Virus record (IMG/VR): IMGVR_UViG_3300042361_000188
Span: 1-34,782 of that record
Reading direction: 5' to 3' (one strand)
Origin: a virus
Length of the DNA stretch: 34,782 nucleotides
Shown: piece by piece, positions 8,512-16,343 of the stretch
Layout of the letters: every line of letters starts with the position of its first letter
How positions within the stretch are numbered: the first letter of the stretch is position 1
The notes under the pieces: model-generated
Told to the model about the DNA's origin: nothing
What the model saw: only the letters and a program-made list of their open reading frames with translations
Databases searched by the model: none
Program-made: the position numbers and the translations under genes

Positions 8512-10398
8512 CTATATCCGATCTGCTGGTTTAAATTCTGCTTTACCACCTGGGCGATACGCTGGTGATGGTGTTACCGATGCCCATAGTTTGTCATCAT
8601 TTGCTGTAATGTTTGAGTAATACCCACGTACTGTTTGTTCAATAGGTTTTGTATCTCCAAACCGTGTTGCTTTTATCGTGATTACTAACTCAGCAGTAAA
8701 CTGATCTTCTTCAAATGGGATTGGCATAGTTTCAGATGGTCTTGTAAATGTATAAAATGCCGGGGTTCCATCACCCAATGGGTTGTTTATCCCAAGAGTT
8801 TCTCCTTTAATTAAATTAAATTTACTGAACCCACGTTTTTGACCAAATACCATAAACTGTCTTCTTTCGTCATCACCTTTTCTAGAACCTTGTTCATAAT
8901 AAACAGGAAGTTCTGAGCAGGTAATAACAAAAGGTTTTGTTTTTGTTCCCCAGTCAGCAAGGTTGTTTGACCCCTGTTTTGGTGGGGGGCCATCAGCATA
9001 TTGAATACCACCTGGGGTTACTGCATTTGTTCTAGTAGTTATTCGAGGGTTCGTTGCATTTGATACGTGTCGTGACCACCATATCCTTATCTCACCACTA
9101 AATGTAAATTGGCAACCACCACCATTTTTCTCTTTGGCTGCAACGTTGTCATAAAACGATTTACCCTCTTTAGATACTAAGGCAGCAAAGTTAAATTCAT
9201 ACTTATTGTTTGGGTTAGCAAAAACAGCATCTATTAAATCCACAGAGTTTTCGCTACCTTGAATATGTGCAGCACCCTCCATATAATTTTTTGTTCCTTC
9301 TAGCGTTTGTTTAACTACGTCAGATGGGGTAGCACTACCAGAAGGGGCACCACCAGAGCCAGTTGAATTTTCGTCTGGTGCTGTGTTACTCAACGATGAT
9401 GTTAAAAATGTATCCTTTTGAGCAAAACCAATGTATAGTGCCTGCACTTGTAACTCAACAATTGCTTGGGTTGGGACCATTTTTGTATTAAATTTGTTAA
9501 AGGTAACTTTGTGAGACATGATAAAACCTTCAACCATAAACCATTCTGACAACATGATTCGAACTGGTGTAGGGACTAGGTATGCTTTGTTTCCAATGTT
9601 TGATGAAAAAACACTTAATTTGTTTGAGTCATAGTCTGACGCTAAATCATCATCTGTAGTGTCGGTTGTATCTTTCGTAGATGATCCAGTTTCTGTAGCA
9701 GGTTTAAATGTTCCAGATTCTTTTTGTTGAATGATGTCTTTAGCCAAGCCTTGACCAACAATGTCATCAAGAATTAAAATGTCAGCAAGAACACCAATCT
9801 CAGTAACCCATGCTGGATCGTAACTTTCTGTTATATATTTCTCAGGGTTGTTACCAATTCCATTTTCTAAAGTTTTACCAGACACTAGGTTTCCGTTTGC
9901 ATCTTTGTATTTACCGCTAGCCATTTCAGCCTCACGATTAAATAAAAGCACAAAACCAAACGATGCTTGACCAGGAATTGGTTGTGCTAACTGGTCTGGG
10001 TTTTGGTTAAAAAAGTATTGCATGTTGTGGTTTGCTTCGATACTTCTAGTAATCAACTCAGGATTAAATTGAAAGTTACAACGCAAGTTCTTTAAAGTTT
10101 TAGCACCCTCTACGTTTTTATAAAACTCTGTAAGTCTTCGTATGTACCCTCTGTTTATAACTTCTGTAGCACCATCTTTAGGTACGCCGTTTGTTGCATA
10201 TGTCCTAGGGTTACCTGGATATATAAACGGTGGATTCATATTAGAAAATAATGATGTCTCTGACTCACGTTGACCAAACGATGTTGGGTTATCAACAGTT
10301 GAAGATTTAATTGGGGCTGCCTCAACAAATGTAGAAACTTCTGCTGTAGGGTTATATCTACGTGCGGTTAAAGCAGCAAGCATTTCTTCACTAGGCAT
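8512..10398 (-). CDS. Large baseplate/tail structural protein
   Basis: A 628-residue protein between the tape measure and the LysM protein, overlapping the tape measure stop as TAATG. Two similar beta-rich stretches can be seen: NLRCNFQFNPELITRSIEANHN (split here: NLRCNFQFNPEL) with QASFGFVLLFNRE near residues 105-155, and YEFNFAALVSKEGK plus GCQFTFSGEIRIWWSRH around 400-445. A disordered Ser/Thr/Asp-rich insert lies at ~235-260 and a Gly/Ser-rich one at ~350-365. The position fits a tube-initiator or hub-adaptor protein. I do not recognise a precise family. Confidence 0.7.
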   Translation of the reverse strand: MPSEEMLAALTARRYNPTAEVSTFVEAAPIKSSTVDNPTSFGQRESETSLFSNMNPPFIYPGNPRTYATNGVPKDGATEVINRGYIRRLTEFYKNVEGAKTLKNLRCNFQFNPELITRSIEANHNMQYFFNQNPDQLAQPIPGQASFGFVLLFNREAEMASGKYKDANGNLVSGKTLENGIGNNPEKYITESYDPAWVTEIGVLADILILDDIVGQGLAKDIIQQKESGTFKPATETGSSTKDTTDTTDDDLASDYDSNKLSVFSSNIGNKAYLVPTPVRIMLSEWFMVEGFIMSHKVTFNKFNTKMVPTQAIVELQVQALYIGFAQKDTFLTSSLSNTAPDENSTGSGGAPSGSATPSDVVKQTLEGTKNYMEGAAHIQGSENSVDLIDAVFANPNNKYEFNFAALVSKEGKSFYDNVAAKEKNGGGCQFTFSGEIRIWWSRHVSNATNPRITTRTNAVTPGGIQYADGPPPKQGSNNLADWGTKTKPFVITCSELPVYYEQGSRKGDDERRQFMVFGQKRGFSKFNLIKGETLGINNPLGDGTPAFYTFTRPSETMPIPFEEDQFTAELVITIKATRFGDTKPIEQTVRGYYSNITANDDKLWASVTPSPAYRPGGKAEFKPADRI

Positions 10399-13178
10399 TA
10401 GTTGTTCCTCATTGATTGTTTCTTAAGTTCTTCCTGAACCATTCTTGTAATGTTCTGGGCGATTCTCCGAGCGTCTTGCTCATTACCGTTAGAACCGTTC
10501 ATGTTAATAGTTGGTGCAATTGTAATTGAAGTACTACCACCTACGGAGATAGATGAAGATGACCCACGAGATGGCGATGGCATAGGGTCACCACGATCTA
10601 CACCAGCAGCCTTTGCGGCAGCCTGTGCTTTAGGCATCCAGTTTTCAGTGCGGGCTAAAGCATTACCCTTAATACCCCATGGTGAAAGGTTCTCACTTTT
10701 ACCACCACTCAGAATCCACGCTGCTCTCACGTTAGTTTCTGGATCAAACAATTCTTCATTTTTGCTAATCTTAAATTTCTTTAAACGATCAGGTCCAAGT
10801 TTTCCAAGCATGTTGATTTGGAATAGACCATAGGAATCATCTGGTGGTTTTCCATTATGCGCTGTAGGTGTCCACGCCGATTCACGACCAGAAATAGCCA
10901 ACATGTTGATAAGGTGTTTTCCACGAAATCCTCGTTTGTACAACAATTTTGCCAGCGCTTGTGGGTCCATTGACCCGGCAGGTTGTGCTCCAGTAGTAGA
11001 ACCAGAAATACTTTGTTCCACTACTGTTGAGTTTGATCCCTGCATTTTTGCAGACTGTGAAAACATTTGACTGTTTTCATATGATGCACCTACTTGTTCT
11101 GCAATAGACATACCTGCGTATGGGTTTACAGTTTGAATAACACCACCGTTACCACCAGCGTTCTTGTAAGAGTCGCCAACCATAGAACCACCGATAGGTT
11201 CCCCTGTGCCAGGATCAGTGGCTACTGCACCACGGGTAGCGCCAGCAGGCATACCCCACTGAGAACCATTCTTTTCGTATTCAAAACGTGAGTTAGGAAG
11301 TTCTGCTGGTTGAATGTGCCAAGGTTCTCCGTTAACGCTTGCAAATGTTTTAAGGCCATACCTAGATGCGTTTTTCTGAACCCAATCAAGGTCTCCAACC
11401 AAGTCGGCAGCAAGACCAAGTTCGTGCATCGAGTGTCCTGGGGGTGCAGCAGGTGCTCCCGATACTCGTTTCCATTGAGCACCATCCCAGTCAACATCTC
11501 CCTTGCTACCATCAGTTACTTTCTTGTAACGGGACAAAAAGAGTTGACGTTGTACAGACTCACTACGAGTTCCTTCACCGATACCAACGTTAGGGTTATC
11601 CGCTATCATCTTAAACAAACGTTCTTTAAACTTAGAGTTAAGACCACTTACGTTTGAATTTGATTGGAGTTGGCTAAACGACACTCGCTTACCACCATAA
11701 CCAGATGGAACCATTGTGTTTCCAGCAGGCATGTTTCCGTCACCCCTACCACCACCCATAATTGCTGCACCCAAAGCGCTGAATCCAAGAGACATACCAC
11801 CTGTGAAAGGTGCTGCTACTATTCCACCAGCCATCAATGCTCCGCCAATGACTTTGCTGCCCATACTTCCTTTACCAATTAAAGGGCTACCGATTCGTGC
11901 GCCAATGATTCCCTTTAGTGCTTCATCAAATTTCATAAGCGTTTCTGTAACCGTTTGGATATTCTGTTCCATCTTTGCATAATCATCAGCGTGGTTACGA
12001 TAAAAGTTTTCGTCACGCCTTCCTTTAGTGGCGATAGTTTCTTCTGCTTGGGTAGCAAAGTTTTCTTCAATACCCATAACAGTTCTGTGGGCTGCATTGG
12101 ATGGGTCGTACTGCCCCATTTTTCCGCCAGTCTTTTTAGTGAATTGGTTTGCAGAGTTTGCGTAGTCAAACATTAAGTTTTGAATGTCTTCACCAATACC
12201 CATTGTTTCCAACCGCATTCGGCTGACAGACCCATTTTGCCTTGCTCCTTCTAGCAATGCAGGGTTTCCAAGCAACCCAGCGTTCTTAGCGCCTGTCCTA
12301 ATTACTTCATCAAGTGATCGTTGCTTACCACCTGGTCCATAAATACCAGTACCAAGCATCATCGTCATTCGGTTGTTAACCTGTGCAGAACTCATTGTGG
12401 ATGTCATCTGAGCCAAGTCACCTGTGCTTAATGAATAACCTGATAATGAGCGTAGCCCTTCAAAACCTTTTACGTTAAGGTCAGCCTTTAACCCAGTTTG
12501 CGCTTGCAATGCAAGTAGTGTGTTGACACCCTCTTCACCAATGCGGTAACCAGTTAAAGGTTGGCGCATAGTTGATTGGTATTGTGCCTGGGATATACCC
12601 ATCTGTTGTTGGTAGTAAACACCAAGTTTGTCTGCGGTAAGTGATTTACCATACATTGAGTCAATACGACTATCCATTGCTCCAATTGCATAAGATGCCA
12701 TTTGAGCAACTTGAGAAACAATCCCAGCACCTCTACCGCCAGCAGCACCGCCACCACCAGATCCACCACCAGATCCACCACCACCAGGTCCAAAGTTATT
12801 GATCGTTAATCTACGTGCGTCAATTTGGTTAGCCTGTATCTGGTTTGCACTTGTGTTTGTTATATTTGGGTTTGCTTTAAGTGGATCAACAACACCACCA
12901 GCAGCGCTTCTCCCACCACCACCAGCACCACCAGGATTTAAGTTACCTGTGTCTACAGCAGAAATGTCTTGAAGCAACTTAAGGGTTACTTTAAGTTTTT
13001 CGTTAACACCCTTAAGACCAGACGTGTTGAGGTATTCAAAATCACTTCTAATCTTTTTAACGCCAGCAGCAAGTTTGTCAAATTGCTGAGTATCTAAACG
13101 GAAACGAGCACGAACGTCAGCAGACGCACTGCCTTTAGGGATTGATCCCCGACCTCCAGTTAAATCTTTCTCAGCCAT
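10398..13178 (-). CDS. Tape measure protein with M15 peptidase and lytic transglycosylase domains
   Basis: A 926-residue protein that sets tail length and is probably ejected during infection. Residues ~20-100 are helical, followed by a Gly-rich stretch (GPGGGGSGGGSGGGG) and a long helical/Ala-Gly region with possible membrane segments (~435-475). Around residues 530-625 is an M15 metallopeptidase signature: GTRSESVQRQLF, SMHELGLAADL and EPWHIQ. Around 750-840 is a lysozyme-like transglycosylase: AISGRESAWTPTAH, SYGLFQINMLG and NVRAAWILS. Both domains would cut peptidoglycan on entry. It follows the chaperone frame at a 2-base gap, as tape measure genes do. GGAG precedes the ATG. Confidence 0.92.
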   Translation of the reverse strand: MAEKDLTGGRGSIPKGSASADVRARFRLDTQQFDKLAAGVKKIRSDFEYLNTSGLKGVNEKLKVTLKLLQDISAVDTGNLNPGGAGGGGRSAAGGVVDPLKANPNITNTSANQIQANQIDARRLTINNFGPGGGGSGGGSGGGGAAGGRGAGIVSQVAQMASYAIGAMDSRIDSMYGKSLTADKLGVYYQQQMGISQAQYQSTMRQPLTGYRIGEEGVNTLLALQAQTGLKADLNVKGFEGLRSLSGYSLSTGDLAQMTSTMSSAQVNNRMTMMLGTGIYGPGGKQRSLDEVIRTGAKNAGLLGNPALLEGARQNGSVSRMRLETMGIGEDIQNLMFDYANSANQFTKKTGGKMGQYDPSNAAHRTVMGIEENFATQAEETIATKGRRDENFYRNHADDYAKMEQNIQTVTETLMKFDEALKGIIGARIGSPLIGKGSMGSKVIGGALMAGGIVAAPFTGGMSLGFSALGAAIMGGGRGDGNMPAGNTMVPSGYGGKRVSFSQLQSNSNVSGLNSKFKERLFKMIADNPNVGIGEGTRSESVQRQLFLSRYKKVTDGSKGDVDWDGAQWKRVSGAPAAPPGHSMHELGLAADLVGDLDWVQKNASRYGLKTFASVNGEPWHIQPAELPNSRFEYEKNGSQWGMPAGATRGAVATDPGTGEPIGGSMVGDSYKNAGGNGGVIQTVNPYAGMSIAEQVGASYENSQMFSQSAKMQGSNSTVVEQSISGSTTGAQPAGSMDPQALAKLLYKRGFRGKHLINMLAISGRESAWTPTAHNGKPPDDSYGLFQINMLGKLGPDRLKKFKISKNEELFDPETNVRAAWILSGGKSENLSPWGIKGNALARTENWMPKAQAAAKAAGVDRGDPMPSPSRGSSSSISVGGSTSITIAPTINMNGSNGNEQDARRIAQNITRMVQEELKKQSMRNN

Positions 13179-13180
13179 AA

Positions 13181-13348
13181 TTACTCCTGTTTACGCCATC
13201 TACTCATTGCTGACCAGTAAGTTCTTTGCCTTACAGTCATTGATTTAATATCCTTGAGCGAGAAGCCCTTGTAAACAGAAGCAATCGAATCGTATTCCCA
13301 ATATGTTACTACTAAATTAGCCGAATAAAAGTGAGGCCCAGTTGAGCA
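13181..13348 (-). CDS. Frameshifted C-terminal extension of the tail assembly chaperone
   Basis: After the stop of the gp26-like gene another frame, open from 13348 to a TAA at 13183-13181, codes for about 47 further residues, including TYWEYDSIASVYKGFSLKD and MTVRQRTYWSAMSRWR. It has no ATG, GTG or TTG near its beginning; the first ATG would leave 19 residues. Its frame is +1 (or -2) relative to the upstream gene. It ends 2 bases before the tape measure ATG, exactly where the lambda G-GT and P2 E-E' type frameshift extensions lie. The sequence CTT-TTA-TTC-GGC-TAA at 13331-13317 may host the shift; CTT-T resembles the prfB +1 site. The frameshift itself is inference. Confidence 0.65.
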   Translation of the reverse strand, partial: CSTGPHFYSANLVVTYWEYDSIASVYKGFSLKDIKSMTVRQRTYWSAMSRWRKQE

Positions 13349-14111
13349 TTACGGGGAATTGCTTTTCGCAATGGGCGCAGTGGGCTTCCACCTCCTTGAT
13401 TTCTGGGCCAGGTTGTGCTTCCATTAACTTGTCAATAATTGCTGATCGGTCTTTCATTCCTAATTTCTTAGCCCAAGCAAGAATATCCTTTGGCTTTTCC
13501 CCATCTGGGAATACAGCACAACGGGAAATAAGAATGGTGTTCTGTTCTGGAACCGTCTTAGCCTTTGTTGTAACAAATTGTGTATCTGCACCAGAAACTA
13601 AACGGAACCTTTGCTCAACTCCATTACGCAAAATTACAGTAATGCCATCCCTAAGATCGCCTTTACCTTCACGGACTGGGAACTCTGACATCTCAATAAA
13701 CACGTCATTGGACTTACCGCAATGTGGGCAATTCATTTGGTACTCACGCACTTCGCCATAAGTTGCACGAACTGTAGCCAAGAACAGAGTGTCTCGGTCT
13801 CCGATAATTAGATTGTCAATAACCGATGGGTTATTTTTAACCTTTACGTTTCCAATACTTTCAACACTTCGTTTAAGTAGCGCTGACATGTATTGGGCGT
13901 AAAGGTAATCGTCATCTGATTCCATTGAAGCAAGTGCTTCTTCATCCTCACCAGTTAACTCGTTAACTGTGGCAAGGGTTTCCCACTCTTTTGTTTCAGG
14001 GTTTTGAACACCCCTGAACAACTCAACTGTTGTTACAGGGGCATTCTGAATACGTGGTACTGGGTCTGCAATTGCAGCGTTTACCGACATTGCGTCTGAT
14101 TGGGTAGACAT
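13317..14111 (-). CDS. T4 gp26-like baseplate/tail assembly chaperone with split zinc site
   Basis: A 264-residue protein between tail tube and tape measure. It contains two Cys pairs, CPHCGK (C128, C131) and CAHCEK (C245, C248), which could together bind one zinc ion. IGDRDTLFLATVRATYGE (~104-120) precedes the first pair, a layout seen in T4 gp26-like baseplate assembly proteins. Such a protein at this position usually acts with a frameshifted partner to keep the tape measure soluble, and a candidate extension overlaps its 3' end. RBS AAGGAG is 8 bases before the ATG. The N-terminal ~20 residues look disordered. Confidence 0.75.
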   Translation of the reverse strand: MSTQSDAMSVNAAIADPVPRIQNAPVTTVELFRGVQNPETKEWETLATVNELTGEDEEALASMESDDDYLYAQYMSALLKRSVESIGNVKVKNNPSVIDNLIIGDRDTLFLATVRATYGEVREYQMNCPHCGKSNDVFIEMSEFPVREGKGDLRDGITVILRNGVEQRFRLVSGADTQFVTTKAKTVPEQNTILISRCAVFPDGEKPKDILAWAKKLGMKDRSAIIDKLMEAQPGPEIKEVEAHCAHCEKQFPVMLNWASLLFG

Positions 14112-14148: not shown

Positions 14149-14787
14149 TTATTCTTGACTGTCAATTGCCGCAATTTCTGATGCTGTCCAAGCAACATAG
14201 AATCCTTCGTGGTGAACGTTCATTGATTGAACCATGATGCCGTTGTCACCAGCGTTAAGGTCGCTGAGTCCGTAAGCACCAGGCCATGCGTTGAACAACT
14301 TATAAGCCAGTTTGACGTTACCAGGTTTTACGTTGGCACTTTCATTTTGGCTACTGTCGTAGGCATAGCGTGTTGGTCCTTGATCAGTTACTGAATTAGT
14401 AAATGGGTGGTCATAAACCTTAACAATAATGTTGCATCGGTAGTTTGACCCATCTCCAGATGACCCACCTGGGAAACCAGAAACACCACCACTGATCCAT
14501 GAATGCATGAACTTTTGCCAGTTCCACAGTTGGGCTTGCTCAGCAAATGCGCCACGAGCAAACGACACTGGTGGGAAGTCTGACTGCCCAACCATCTTGT
14601 GTGGGTGGGTATTCATTCCGCCTTCACGGTATGGGATAACTTCGTTTGTTACGGCAAGTCCACCCATTGATGCAAAACCCAAATCACCAATACCAGTGGT
14701 CAGGTTTTTGAGTTCATCATCAAGAGGTACAAACTTAACCGTAAACTTAAAGTTACGGAGCGGATCTGTGCGTTGTGTACGTGCCAT
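14149..14787 (-). CDS. Tail tube protein (T4 gp19-like)
   Basis: A 212-residue protein that builds the inner tube under the sheath. Family features are RTDPLRNFKFTVKFVPLDD at the start, DLGFASMGGLAVTNEVIPYREGG (~35-57), HPHKMVGQSDFPPVSFARG (~60-79) and LWNWQKFMH. The gene directly follows the sheath gene, the normal order in contractile tails, and has a good RBS (AGGAG, 8 bases before ATG). Confidence 0.93.
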   Translation of the reverse strand: MARTQRTDPLRNFKFTVKFVPLDDELKNLTTGIGDLGFASMGGLAVTNEVIPYREGGMNTHPHKMVGQSDFPPVSFARGAFAEQAQLWNWQKFMHSWISGGVSGFPGGSSGDGSNYRCNIIVKVYDHPFTNSVTDQGPTRYAYDSSQNESANVKPGNVKLAYKLFNAWPGAYGLSDLNAGDNGIMVQSMNVHHEGFYVAWTASEIAAIDSQE

Positions 14788-14795
14788 GTTTTCTC

Positions 14796-16343
14796 CTAGG
14801 CGTTAGTAGTGACGGTGCTTCCACCAGTCCATTGACTGATGTTAATTACAATGTATTCAGCAGGAGACTGCAAAGCGACTCCGATAGTTACGTTTACTCT
14901 TCCATCTTCAATATCATTTTGCGTGTTGTTAGTCGAGTTACAAATGACGTAATAGGCTTCTGTTGAAGAGTTGCCCTTAAGTCCACCAGTTGCCCAAAAG
15001 GCATTAAGGAGTGAGGACAAACGAACTGTAATGTCTGACCACAAACGCTGATCGTTTGGCTCAAACATTGCAAATGCTGTCTTTTGCTTAATCACATCCT
15101 TGAGGTAGTTGATTGAACGGCGAACCGTTACATACTTGTCAGATGTGTTACGGGCAAGTGTTCGTGAACCGTTGATGATCACACCAACTCCTGGAACAAG
15201 GTTAAACAAGTTGATTTGACTGTCCTTGTAAACCGTTCCTTGCTGGGCTTCAGTAAGGGTTCCAACAAGTCCATAAACGTTGCGGATATCCAAACCGTAA
15301 CCAGCAGGTGCTTTAGCAACACCACGGGTTACTTCTGAACGAATGAACGCACCGAGTACAGCACCACCAGCATAAGTGTTGCGGATTGCAGCAGCACCAG
15401 TCTTCTTAGGATCAAACATCTTAAGTGCTGGTCCGTAAACTGCTGCGTAACTTGACTTAGTGTAGGCCGATACAGCGCTCTGCAATTGATCTGCCGTTGT
15501 AGCAGTAAGTGGGGTATCAATAATCAACATTGAGTTTCCACGTGCTTGCATCACGTTAATCGCACTGTTAATGATTGTTGATGATGTTTGACCAACCAAG
15601 TTAAACAACAGTCCAGAAGTAATTGTTTCATATGAAGAAACTGCGGTTGCCCAATCAGTTGCGTCAATTGATCCTGCTCCTTCAGACCCGTTTGTAAAGG
15701 TTGTTGTTGAAACATAATCATTAGCAGCAATTCCAGTTACAGTAAGAGTTGTTCCAGCAGCAACAGTTGCTACCGTTGAGGCACTTACATAAGATGAGTA
15801 AAGATCAAGCACTGTGTCAATGTAGCGAACGTTTTCTGGGTCAACTGAAAGGTTATTCCAGCGCTCTACTTCAACGCTATTAAGTTTTACAGTAAGACTA
15901 AACAACGAGTTCTTGGTTGCCTTTGGCGTTGTTGTTGGGTTATCCAATGTTTCTGGATCAAAGGTGTAGTCAACAGTAAGGTTATTGCCCCAAGCACCAG
16001 GTGACTTTGTAACTAAAAGCACAAGGTTGGCACTGCTTCCACCCGTTGGGGTTGCAGTCAACGCACTTTGTGCAATTGTTGCGGATGAGTCAATTACACG
16101 TGTAATGTATGCAGTTTGACCGCCATTAGCAAAGTAATGATAAACAGCATAACCTAAATCATAGTCATTGCTCAGTTCACCAAACAAACTTGTGTATTGA
16201 TTCCAAGACGTGACCAATGTTGGTGTGGTTGGTCCACGATCTGCAAGTCCAACAAATGCAGCACCAGTTGGTCCTGATGTTGTTTGAATGTTGGTCGCAA
16301 ACGTACCTTCCTGTACGTAAACTCCTGGGCGTTCGTATGCCAT
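14796..16343 (-). CDS. Contractile tail sheath protein
   Basis: A 515-residue protein starting MAYERPGVYVQEG, the hallmark N-terminus of sheath proteins, followed by GAAFVGLADRGPTTP, SWNQYTSLFG and YAVYHYFANGG (~25-75). The C-terminal half contains NVYGLVGTLTEAQQGTVYKD, GVGVIINGSRTLA, YVTVRRSINYLKD and the conserved end AEYIVINISQW. Contraction of this sheath drives the tube through the envelope, which establishes the myovirus morphology. RBS AGGAG precedes the ATG. Confidence 0.96.
   Translation of the reverse strand: MAYERPGVYVQEGTFATNIQTTSGPTGAAFVGLADRGPTTPTLVTSWNQYTSLFGELSNDYDLGYAVYHYFANGGQTAYITRVIDSSATIAQSALTATPTGGSSANLVLLVTKSPGAWGNNLTVDYTFDPETLDNPTTTPKATKNSLFSLTVKLNSVEVERWNNLSVDPENVRYIDTVLDLYSSYVSASTVATVAAGTTLTVTGIAANDYVSTTTFTNGSEGAGSIDATDWATAVSSYETITSGLLFNLVGQTSSTIINSAINVMQARGNSMLIIDTPLTATTADQLQSAVSAYTKSSYAAVYGPALKMFDPKKTGAAAIRNTYAGGAVLGAFIRSEVTRGVAKAPAGYGLDIRNVYGLVGTLTEAQQGTVYKDSQINLFNLVPGVGVIINGSRTLARNTSDKYVTVRRSINYLKDVIKQKTAFAMFEPNDQRLWSDITVRLSSLLNAFWATGGLKGNSSTEAYYVICNSTNNTQNDIEDGRVNVTIGVALQSPAEYIVINISQWTGGSTVTTNA

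What the first reader, a model, noticed from the sequence alone, without database searches (positions are those of the whole stretch)
13181..13348. Probable +1 (or -2) programmed frameshift making a tail assembly chaperone extension
The frame after the gp26-like stop is open for ~47 codons, lacks a standard start codon near its beginning, and ends 2 bases before the tape measure ATG. The -1 frame closes at once, so the shift would be +1 or -2, less usual than the -1 of lambda. CTT-TTA resembles the CTT-T slip of prfB.
Basis: partly seen in the sequence, partly recalled or inferred. Interest (0 to 1): 0.6.

Follow-up and report, generated by a model that had tools for sequence, protein, structure and literature searches.

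The report
+1 frameshift in phage tail chaperone
A freshwater phage and its relatives appear to make a short and a long version of one tail-building helper protein by having some ribosomes skip one base near the end of the gene, a +1 variation on a trick that many phages use.

Summary
The frame after the gp26-like stop stays open in all 231 of 233 homologous loci whose contig does not end inside it. It is under strong protein-level selection: dN/dS 0.11, against 1.4-1.9 in the other frames.

Best explanation: a programmed +1 shift that adds a 48-residue C-terminal domain to a tail assembly chaperone (TAC). The slip site is CUU_Y in all 48 representatives of the window's clade and UUU_C in all 65 others. 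TTT followed by C is only 18 of 389 background Phe codons.

Gene order is sheath, tube, chaperone, tape measure. The predicted fold's best solved matches are phage TAC structures, at middling Z. T4 gp26 and gp51 are in the same Pfam family, and gp51 looks like gp26 plus this domain.

Prior art covers much: TAC frameshifting is classical, a +1 at TTT-CGC was proposed for haloviruses (PMC7230728), and T4-like TAC genes were identified in 2022 (a paper I could not read). Apparently new: the +1 sites in this family, the CUU_Y variant, and a likely link to DUF6760 of contractile injection systems.

A -2 shift is not excluded in the window's clade by pairing alone. There is no protein evidence.

The parts
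13317..14111 (-). Zero-frame gene: short form of the chaperone, 264 aa, T4 gp26/gp51 family (PF12322)
   Evidence: Pfam PF12322 48.2 bits against a cut-off of 24.5; phrog_150; AlphaFold2 pLDDT 92.5
13328..13331 (-). Predicted slip site CTT_T: Leu codon CTT at 13331-13329, skipped T at 13328
   Evidence: CTT has no variation in the clade, next base always T or C
13317..13319 (-). Zero-frame stop codon TAA
   Evidence: sequence; TAA, TGA or TAG in relatives
13181..13327 (-). +1-frame extension as it would be read after the slip: 48 codons (YSANLVV...WRKQE) and stop
   Evidence: open in 231 of 231 uncut loci; dN/dS 0.109
13335..13340 (-). TGGGCC, weak Shine-Dalgarno-like stretch upstream of the slip codon; role uncertain
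   Evidence: mean anti-SD duplex energy about -2.9 kcal/mol in both clades; may only reflect the encoded protein
13184..13188 (-). AGGAG inside the extension, likely ribosome binding site of the tape-measure gene
   Evidence: sequence
10398..13178 (-). Tape-measure-like gene, 926 aa, with SLT and VanY-like stretches
   Evidence: position and length; Pfam
14149..14787 (-). Tail tube protein (T4 gp19-like)
   Evidence: PF06841, 72.9 bits
14796..16343 (-). Tail sheath protein
   Evidence: PF17482, phrog_23

Best explanation
The locus encodes a tail assembly chaperone of the T4 gp26/gp51 family in two forms. Most ribosomes stop at 13319-13317 and make the short, 264-residue form. A minority slip forward by one base while tRNA-Leu holds CUU at 13331-13329: it re-pairs with UUU, base 13328 is skipped, and translation runs on for 48 codons in the +1 frame, giving a form of 309 residues with a C-terminal T-like domain. 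By analogy with lambda gpG/gpGT, many short copies would coat the tape-measure protein and the few long copies would recruit the tail tube protein. Shown here: dual coding, its conservation and the invariant slip codon. Inferred: that the shift happens, its +1 direction, its efficiency, and the chaperone function.
For: +1 frame conserved in 231 of 231 uncut loci. dN/dS 0.109 in the +1 frame against 1.37 and 1.87 in the others. CTT_Y in 48 of 48 and TTT_C in 65 of 65 representatives at 90% identity, the only codon re-pairable by +1 in all of them. TTT_C is kept 3 to 9 codons before the stop, while the next amino acid varies. 53 of 111 representatives have no ATG/GTG/TTG in the +1 frame before the conserved core. 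Gene order sheath, tube, this gene, tape measure. Best VIA-align matches are HK97 tail assembly chaperone 2OB9 Z 7.2, YqbN 3KLU 7.0, 3FGX 6.5; next 3.9. Fused profile aligns with T4 gp51 through the extension, Prob 94, E 1.2e-7.
Against: No proteomics or reporter data. No downstream RNA structure signal, no adjacent stop codon, and only a weak SD-like signal, so the stimulator is unknown. Z values near 7 can reflect a common arrangement. The extension alone matches gp51, P2 gpE' and DUF6760 only by weak or profile-profile scores.
Confidence: 0.85

Rival explanations
1. The long form is made by a -2 rather than a +1 shift: tRNA-Leu on YTA, the codon after CTT, slips back two bases onto TTY, giving WASLLYSAN instead of WASLYSAN. 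Both reach the same frame.
For: By a two-base pairing rule the -2 slip at YTA is possible in 48 of 48 window-clade representatives.
Against: It leaves a third-position mismatch (U-U or C-U). In the UUU_C clades the equivalent -2 slip is possible in only 22 of 65, whereas +1 is possible in 65 of 65. The invariance of CTT and of the following Y is explained by +1.
Confidence: 0.08
2. The second frame is a separate small gene, translated from its own start (unusual or internal) by re-initiation after the gp26-like stop.
For: GenBank annotates such a small ORF in BRock, LuckySocke and GiJojo. Related systems do encode the module separately: ATG-started in L362 and L367, ATGA-coupled DUF6760 in actinobacterial loci.
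Against: 53 of 111 representatives have no ATG/GTG/TTG in the +1 frame before the conserved core. Conservation runs upstream of the annotated starts. It does not explain the invariant CTT_Y or TTT_C.
Confidence: 0.05
3. The messenger itself is edited by transcriptional slippage on the T run, so the shift is made by RNA polymerase.
For: The window's CTTTTA holds a run of four Ts.
Against: The run is interrupted in CTTCTA relatives and is three Ts in most TTT_C relatives, shorter than runs usually reported for slippage (general knowledge).
Confidence: 0.01
4. The open frame is a chance or decayed remnant without function.
For: A frame of this length is open by chance in 6.8% of shuffles in this genome.
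Against: Open in 231 of 231 loci with dN/dS 0.109.
Confidence: 0.01

Closest known systems
Lambda gpG/gpGT tail chaperone frameshift (and P2 gpE/E+E')
   Same: Short chaperone plus frameshifted long form, directly upstream of the tape-measure gene (PMC5009743; P2 annotation). The extension HMM weakly matches P2 gpE' (E 0.027 in a small search).
   Different: Lambda and P2 shift -1; here the frame is +1. No sequence kinship of the short forms was found.
T4 gp26 and gp51
   Same: Same Pfam family PF12322. gp51 looks like gp26 plus about 48 residues that align with the extension. Both are listed as hub assembly chaperones; gp51 is required but not in the particle (PMC3004832).
   Different: T4 has two genes and no frameshift is needed. 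T4-like TAC genes were already identified by Vladimirov et al. 2022 (not readable here; summarised in PMC10885494).
HF1-group and HSTV-2 haloviruses, tail assembly chaperone
   Same: +1 frame between tube and tape-measure genes, TTT-CGC motif before the stop, proposed as a +1 site (PMC7230728; motif confirmed in HF1).
   Different: Archaeal viruses. No sequence match of the HF1 proteins to this family. The window uses CTT_T.
Bacterial prfB (release factor 2) +1 site CUU_U
   Same: Same slip codon and same +1 re-pairing (PMC5009743).
   Different: prfB has a stop codon right after CUU and a strong SD close upstream; neither is present here.
Influenza A PA-X site UUU_CGU
   Same: Same UUU_C re-pairing as in the relatives of the window (PMC3498833).
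   Different: Eukaryotic ribosomes and an unrelated gene; the window itself has CUU_U.
DUF6760 (PF20546) of actinobacterial contractile systems
   Same: Aligns with the extension, Prob 92, E 6.3e-7; its upstream partner aligns with the N-terminal half of the gp26-like family, Prob 94, E 1.5e-7.
   Different: Separate gene, mostly overlapping its partner by ATGA or GTGA, not frameshifted.

Membership tests
[quoted passage not shown]
   sheath, tube, this gene, tape-measure-like gene
Frameshifted tail assembly chaperone (lambda G/GT kind) | Second frame overlaps the 3' end, is conserved and lacks its own start | tested here: met
Frameshifted tail assembly chaperone (lambda G/GT kind) | Conserved slippery site in the overlap | tested here: met
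   CTT_Y 48 of 48, TTT_C 65 of 65
Frameshifted tail assembly chaperone (lambda G/GT kind) | Both products made, in a fixed ratio | not testable with these tools
   needs proteomics or a reporter
Frameshifted tail assembly chaperone (lambda G/GT kind) | Binds the tape measure and tube proteins, absent from the virion | not testable with these tools
   inferred from position and family only
Tail assembly chaperone fold | Structure resembles solved chaperones such as HK97 2OB9 | tested here: inconclusive
   Z 7.2 over 92 residues, 3.7 A; top three matches are phage or phage-like proteins, next 3.9; no Foldseek hit below E 0.001
T4 gp26/gp51 family (PF12322) | Matches the Pfam model above its cut-off | tested here: met
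   48.2 bits against 24.5
DUF6760 (PF20546) | Extension matches the Pfam model above its cut-off | tested here: not met
   best extension 14.5 bits against 27, window extension no hit; only profile-profile similarity, so not filed as a member
prfB-type +1 site | Stop codon directly after CUU, with SD close upstream | tested here: not met
   codon after CTT is TTA or CTA; SD-like signal weak

The most novel reading that the evidence does not exclude
A +1 shift at UUU_C or its variants is the ancestral way of making the long chaperone in the gp26/gp51 family, across phages of Actinobacteria and Firmicutes and a huge phage. The T4 gene pair, the separate ATG-started gene of a side clade, and the ATGA-coupled DUF6760 gene of actinobacterial contractile systems would be later replacements of that shift. 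The window's CUU_Y would be a bacterial +1 site that works with neither an adjacent stop codon nor RNA structure.
Probability: 0.45. Interest if true: 0.62.

Novelty: new variant of a known kind. Interest (0 to 1): 0.48.

Why it matters
It turns unannotated or mis-annotated small ORFs in many phage contigs into one two-product gene. It provides conserved +1 sites (UUU_C, CUU_Y) in bacterial phages, with no obvious stimulator, so that a minimal +1 system could be studied. It places the locus beside T4 gp26/gp51 and suggests that DUF6760 proteins of contractile injection systems are the T-like half of a tail chaperone, which can be tested.

Tried and rejected
Chance open frame: 6.8% in this genome alone, rejected by conservation. 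Sequencing error: identical contigs and all relatives agree. Independent initiation: rejected as the general rule because half of the representatives have no start codon. Downstream stem or pseudoknot: mean z near 0; only simple folds were tested. Homology to the HF1 chaperone: no match. I first took the T4 gp26/gp51 link as new; one search showed that Vladimirov et al. 2022 had already identified T4-like chaperone genes, so it is not claimed. Two sequences were first counted as TTT_C because of an accidental TTT_C at -39; corrected. Bacillus phage BCD7 could not be fetched. A script with an endless loop gave nothing. No tRNA gene in the window.

Full report
What is there. On the minus strand the window carries a sheath gene (14796-16343), a tube gene (14149-14787), a 264-residue protein of the T4 gp26/gp51 family (13317-14111; PF12322, 48.2 bits), a second open frame (13181-13348) and a long tape-measure-like gene (10398-13178). 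The second frame is +1 relative to the gp26-like gene. It has no usual start codon before the Met of SMTVRQ, and it stops two bases before the next ATG. The -1 frame closes at once.

Is it more than chance? In this genome alone, hardly: a given frame of this length is open in 6.8% of shuffles. Relatives decide it. I collected 233 loci from viral contigs, Streptomyces phage records and bacterial genomes. All 231 that are not cut by a contig end keep the +1 frame for about 40-80 codons past the stop. They hold 160 distinct gp26-like proteins and form 65 clusters at 70% identity. In the window's clade dN/dS is 0.109 in the +1 frame, against 1.37 and 1.87 in the other two frames; the body of the gp26-like gene has 0.211.

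Where would the shift happen? In some relatives (L018 and others) the +1 frame opens only 23 nt before the stop. Within this overlap one codon never varies in the window's clade: CTT, always followed by T or C. In the other clades collected there, the corresponding feature is TTT followed by C. Among 90% representatives, a two-base pairing rule allows a +1 slip at that codon in 48 of 48 and 65 of 65, and at no other codon in all of them. TTT_C makes up 18 of 389 Phe codons elsewhere in the same genes, and CTT_Y 94 of 1137 Leu codons. These ratios are descriptive, because the sequences are related. TTT_C is kept although the next amino acid varies and its distance to the stop ranges from 3 to 9 codons. 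This fits +1 slippage of tRNA-Phe from UUU to UUC, and of tRNA-Leu from CUU to UUY. A -2 slip at the following codon is possible by the same rule in the window's clade, but it is not shared by the other clades.

What stimulates it? Unknown. There is no RNA structure signal. A weak SD-like signal lies a few bases upstream in both clades. The codon after the slip codon is not a stop.

What is the protein? The predicted structure of the zero-frame protein is confident (pLDDT 92.5). Its best solved matches by VIA-align are the HK97 tail assembly chaperone (Z 7.2), YqbN (7.0) and 3FGX (6.5), with the next at 3.9. YqbN is, from memory, an XkdN-type tail chaperone. Z values near 7 are only suggestive. 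Predicted viral structures give T4-like hub assembly proteins. T4 gp26 and gp51 are both in PF12322, and gp51 extends about 48 residues past the end of gp26. The profile of the fused proteins aligns with gp51 through that addition (Prob 94, E 1.2e-7 for a single comparison). The extension alone scores 24.0 against the gp51 C-terminus; the best of 100 column shuffles scores 13.0. In T4 both proteins are listed as hub assembly chaperones, and gp51 is required but absent from the particle (PMC3004832). With the gene order, the simplest reading is a tail assembly chaperone whose long form carries a T-like domain.

Prior art. Frameshifted tail chaperones are classical; PMC5009743 excepts T4 and calls HSTV-2 very likely +1. 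A TTT-CGC +1 site in the halovirus HF1 group was proposed in PMC7230728. I confirmed the motif in HF1 but found no sequence match of its proteins to this family. UUU_CGU is the site shown by mass spectrometry for influenza PA-X (PMC3498833). Vladimirov et al. [quoted passage not shown] I could not read it, but PMC10885494 summarises that some T4-like phages carry a short gene and a longer fused gene. So the T4 link is not claimed as new, and that paper may touch on other phages treated here. PMC12846349 describes a -1 shift in another myophage chaperone.

How far does it reach? Streptococcus phage vB_SagM-GXN1 and a 484-kb uncultured phage, both distant relatives, also have TTT_C followed by an open +1 frame. 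A further clade has TTC TTT TGG with an open +1 frame; its extensions match the extension HMM (E about 1e-6 in a three-sequence search), suggesting UUU_U. Two loci of that search (L362, L367) instead carry the T-like part as an ATG-started ORF. In actinobacterial genomes, loci such as L153, ordered sheath, tube, short zinc-ribbon protein, DUF6760, second tube, have DUF6760 overlapping the upstream gene by ATGA or GTGA. DUF6760 aligns with the extension (Prob 92, E 6.3e-7), and the upstream protein with the N-terminal half of the gp26-like family (Prob 94, E 1.5e-7). I take these loci to be extracellular contractile injection systems from their gene order and from memory.

Verdict. It is a new variant of a known kind, without protein evidence so far.

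Noticed in passing
L145, L151-L161 (actinobacterial genomes; minus-strand hits not reoriented): DUF6760 genes sit between tube genes, directly after a short zinc-ribbon protein, and overlap it by ATGA or GTGA with GGGGGAA just upstream; DUF6760 looks like the T-like half of a tail chaperone.
   Followed up: partly
L165, L172, L173: In these DUF6760 loci no ATG/GTG/TTG lies at the overlap; the sequence GGGGGAATCCTGACG suggests a CTG start.
   Followed up: no
L362, L367: The T-like part is an ATG-started ORF in the +2 frame just after the chaperone stop, instead of a +1 extension.
   Followed up: partly
L352-L360: A clade with TTC TTT TGG before the stop and an open +1 frame resembling the extension; candidate UUU_U site.
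   Followed up: partly
L039-L043 (Streptomyces phages BRock, LuckySocke, pSt2308, GiJojo, Alone3): The +1 extension is annotated as a separate small hypothetical gene with an internal start, or left out, in the public records.
   Followed up: yes
L349 (Streptococcus phage vB_SagM-GXN1), L350 (uncultured 484-kb phage): Distant gp26-like genes also end with TTT_C in an overlap with an open +1 frame.
   Followed up: partly
window 10398-13178: The tape-measure-like protein carries SLT lysozyme-like and VanY-like peptidase stretches.
   Followed up: no
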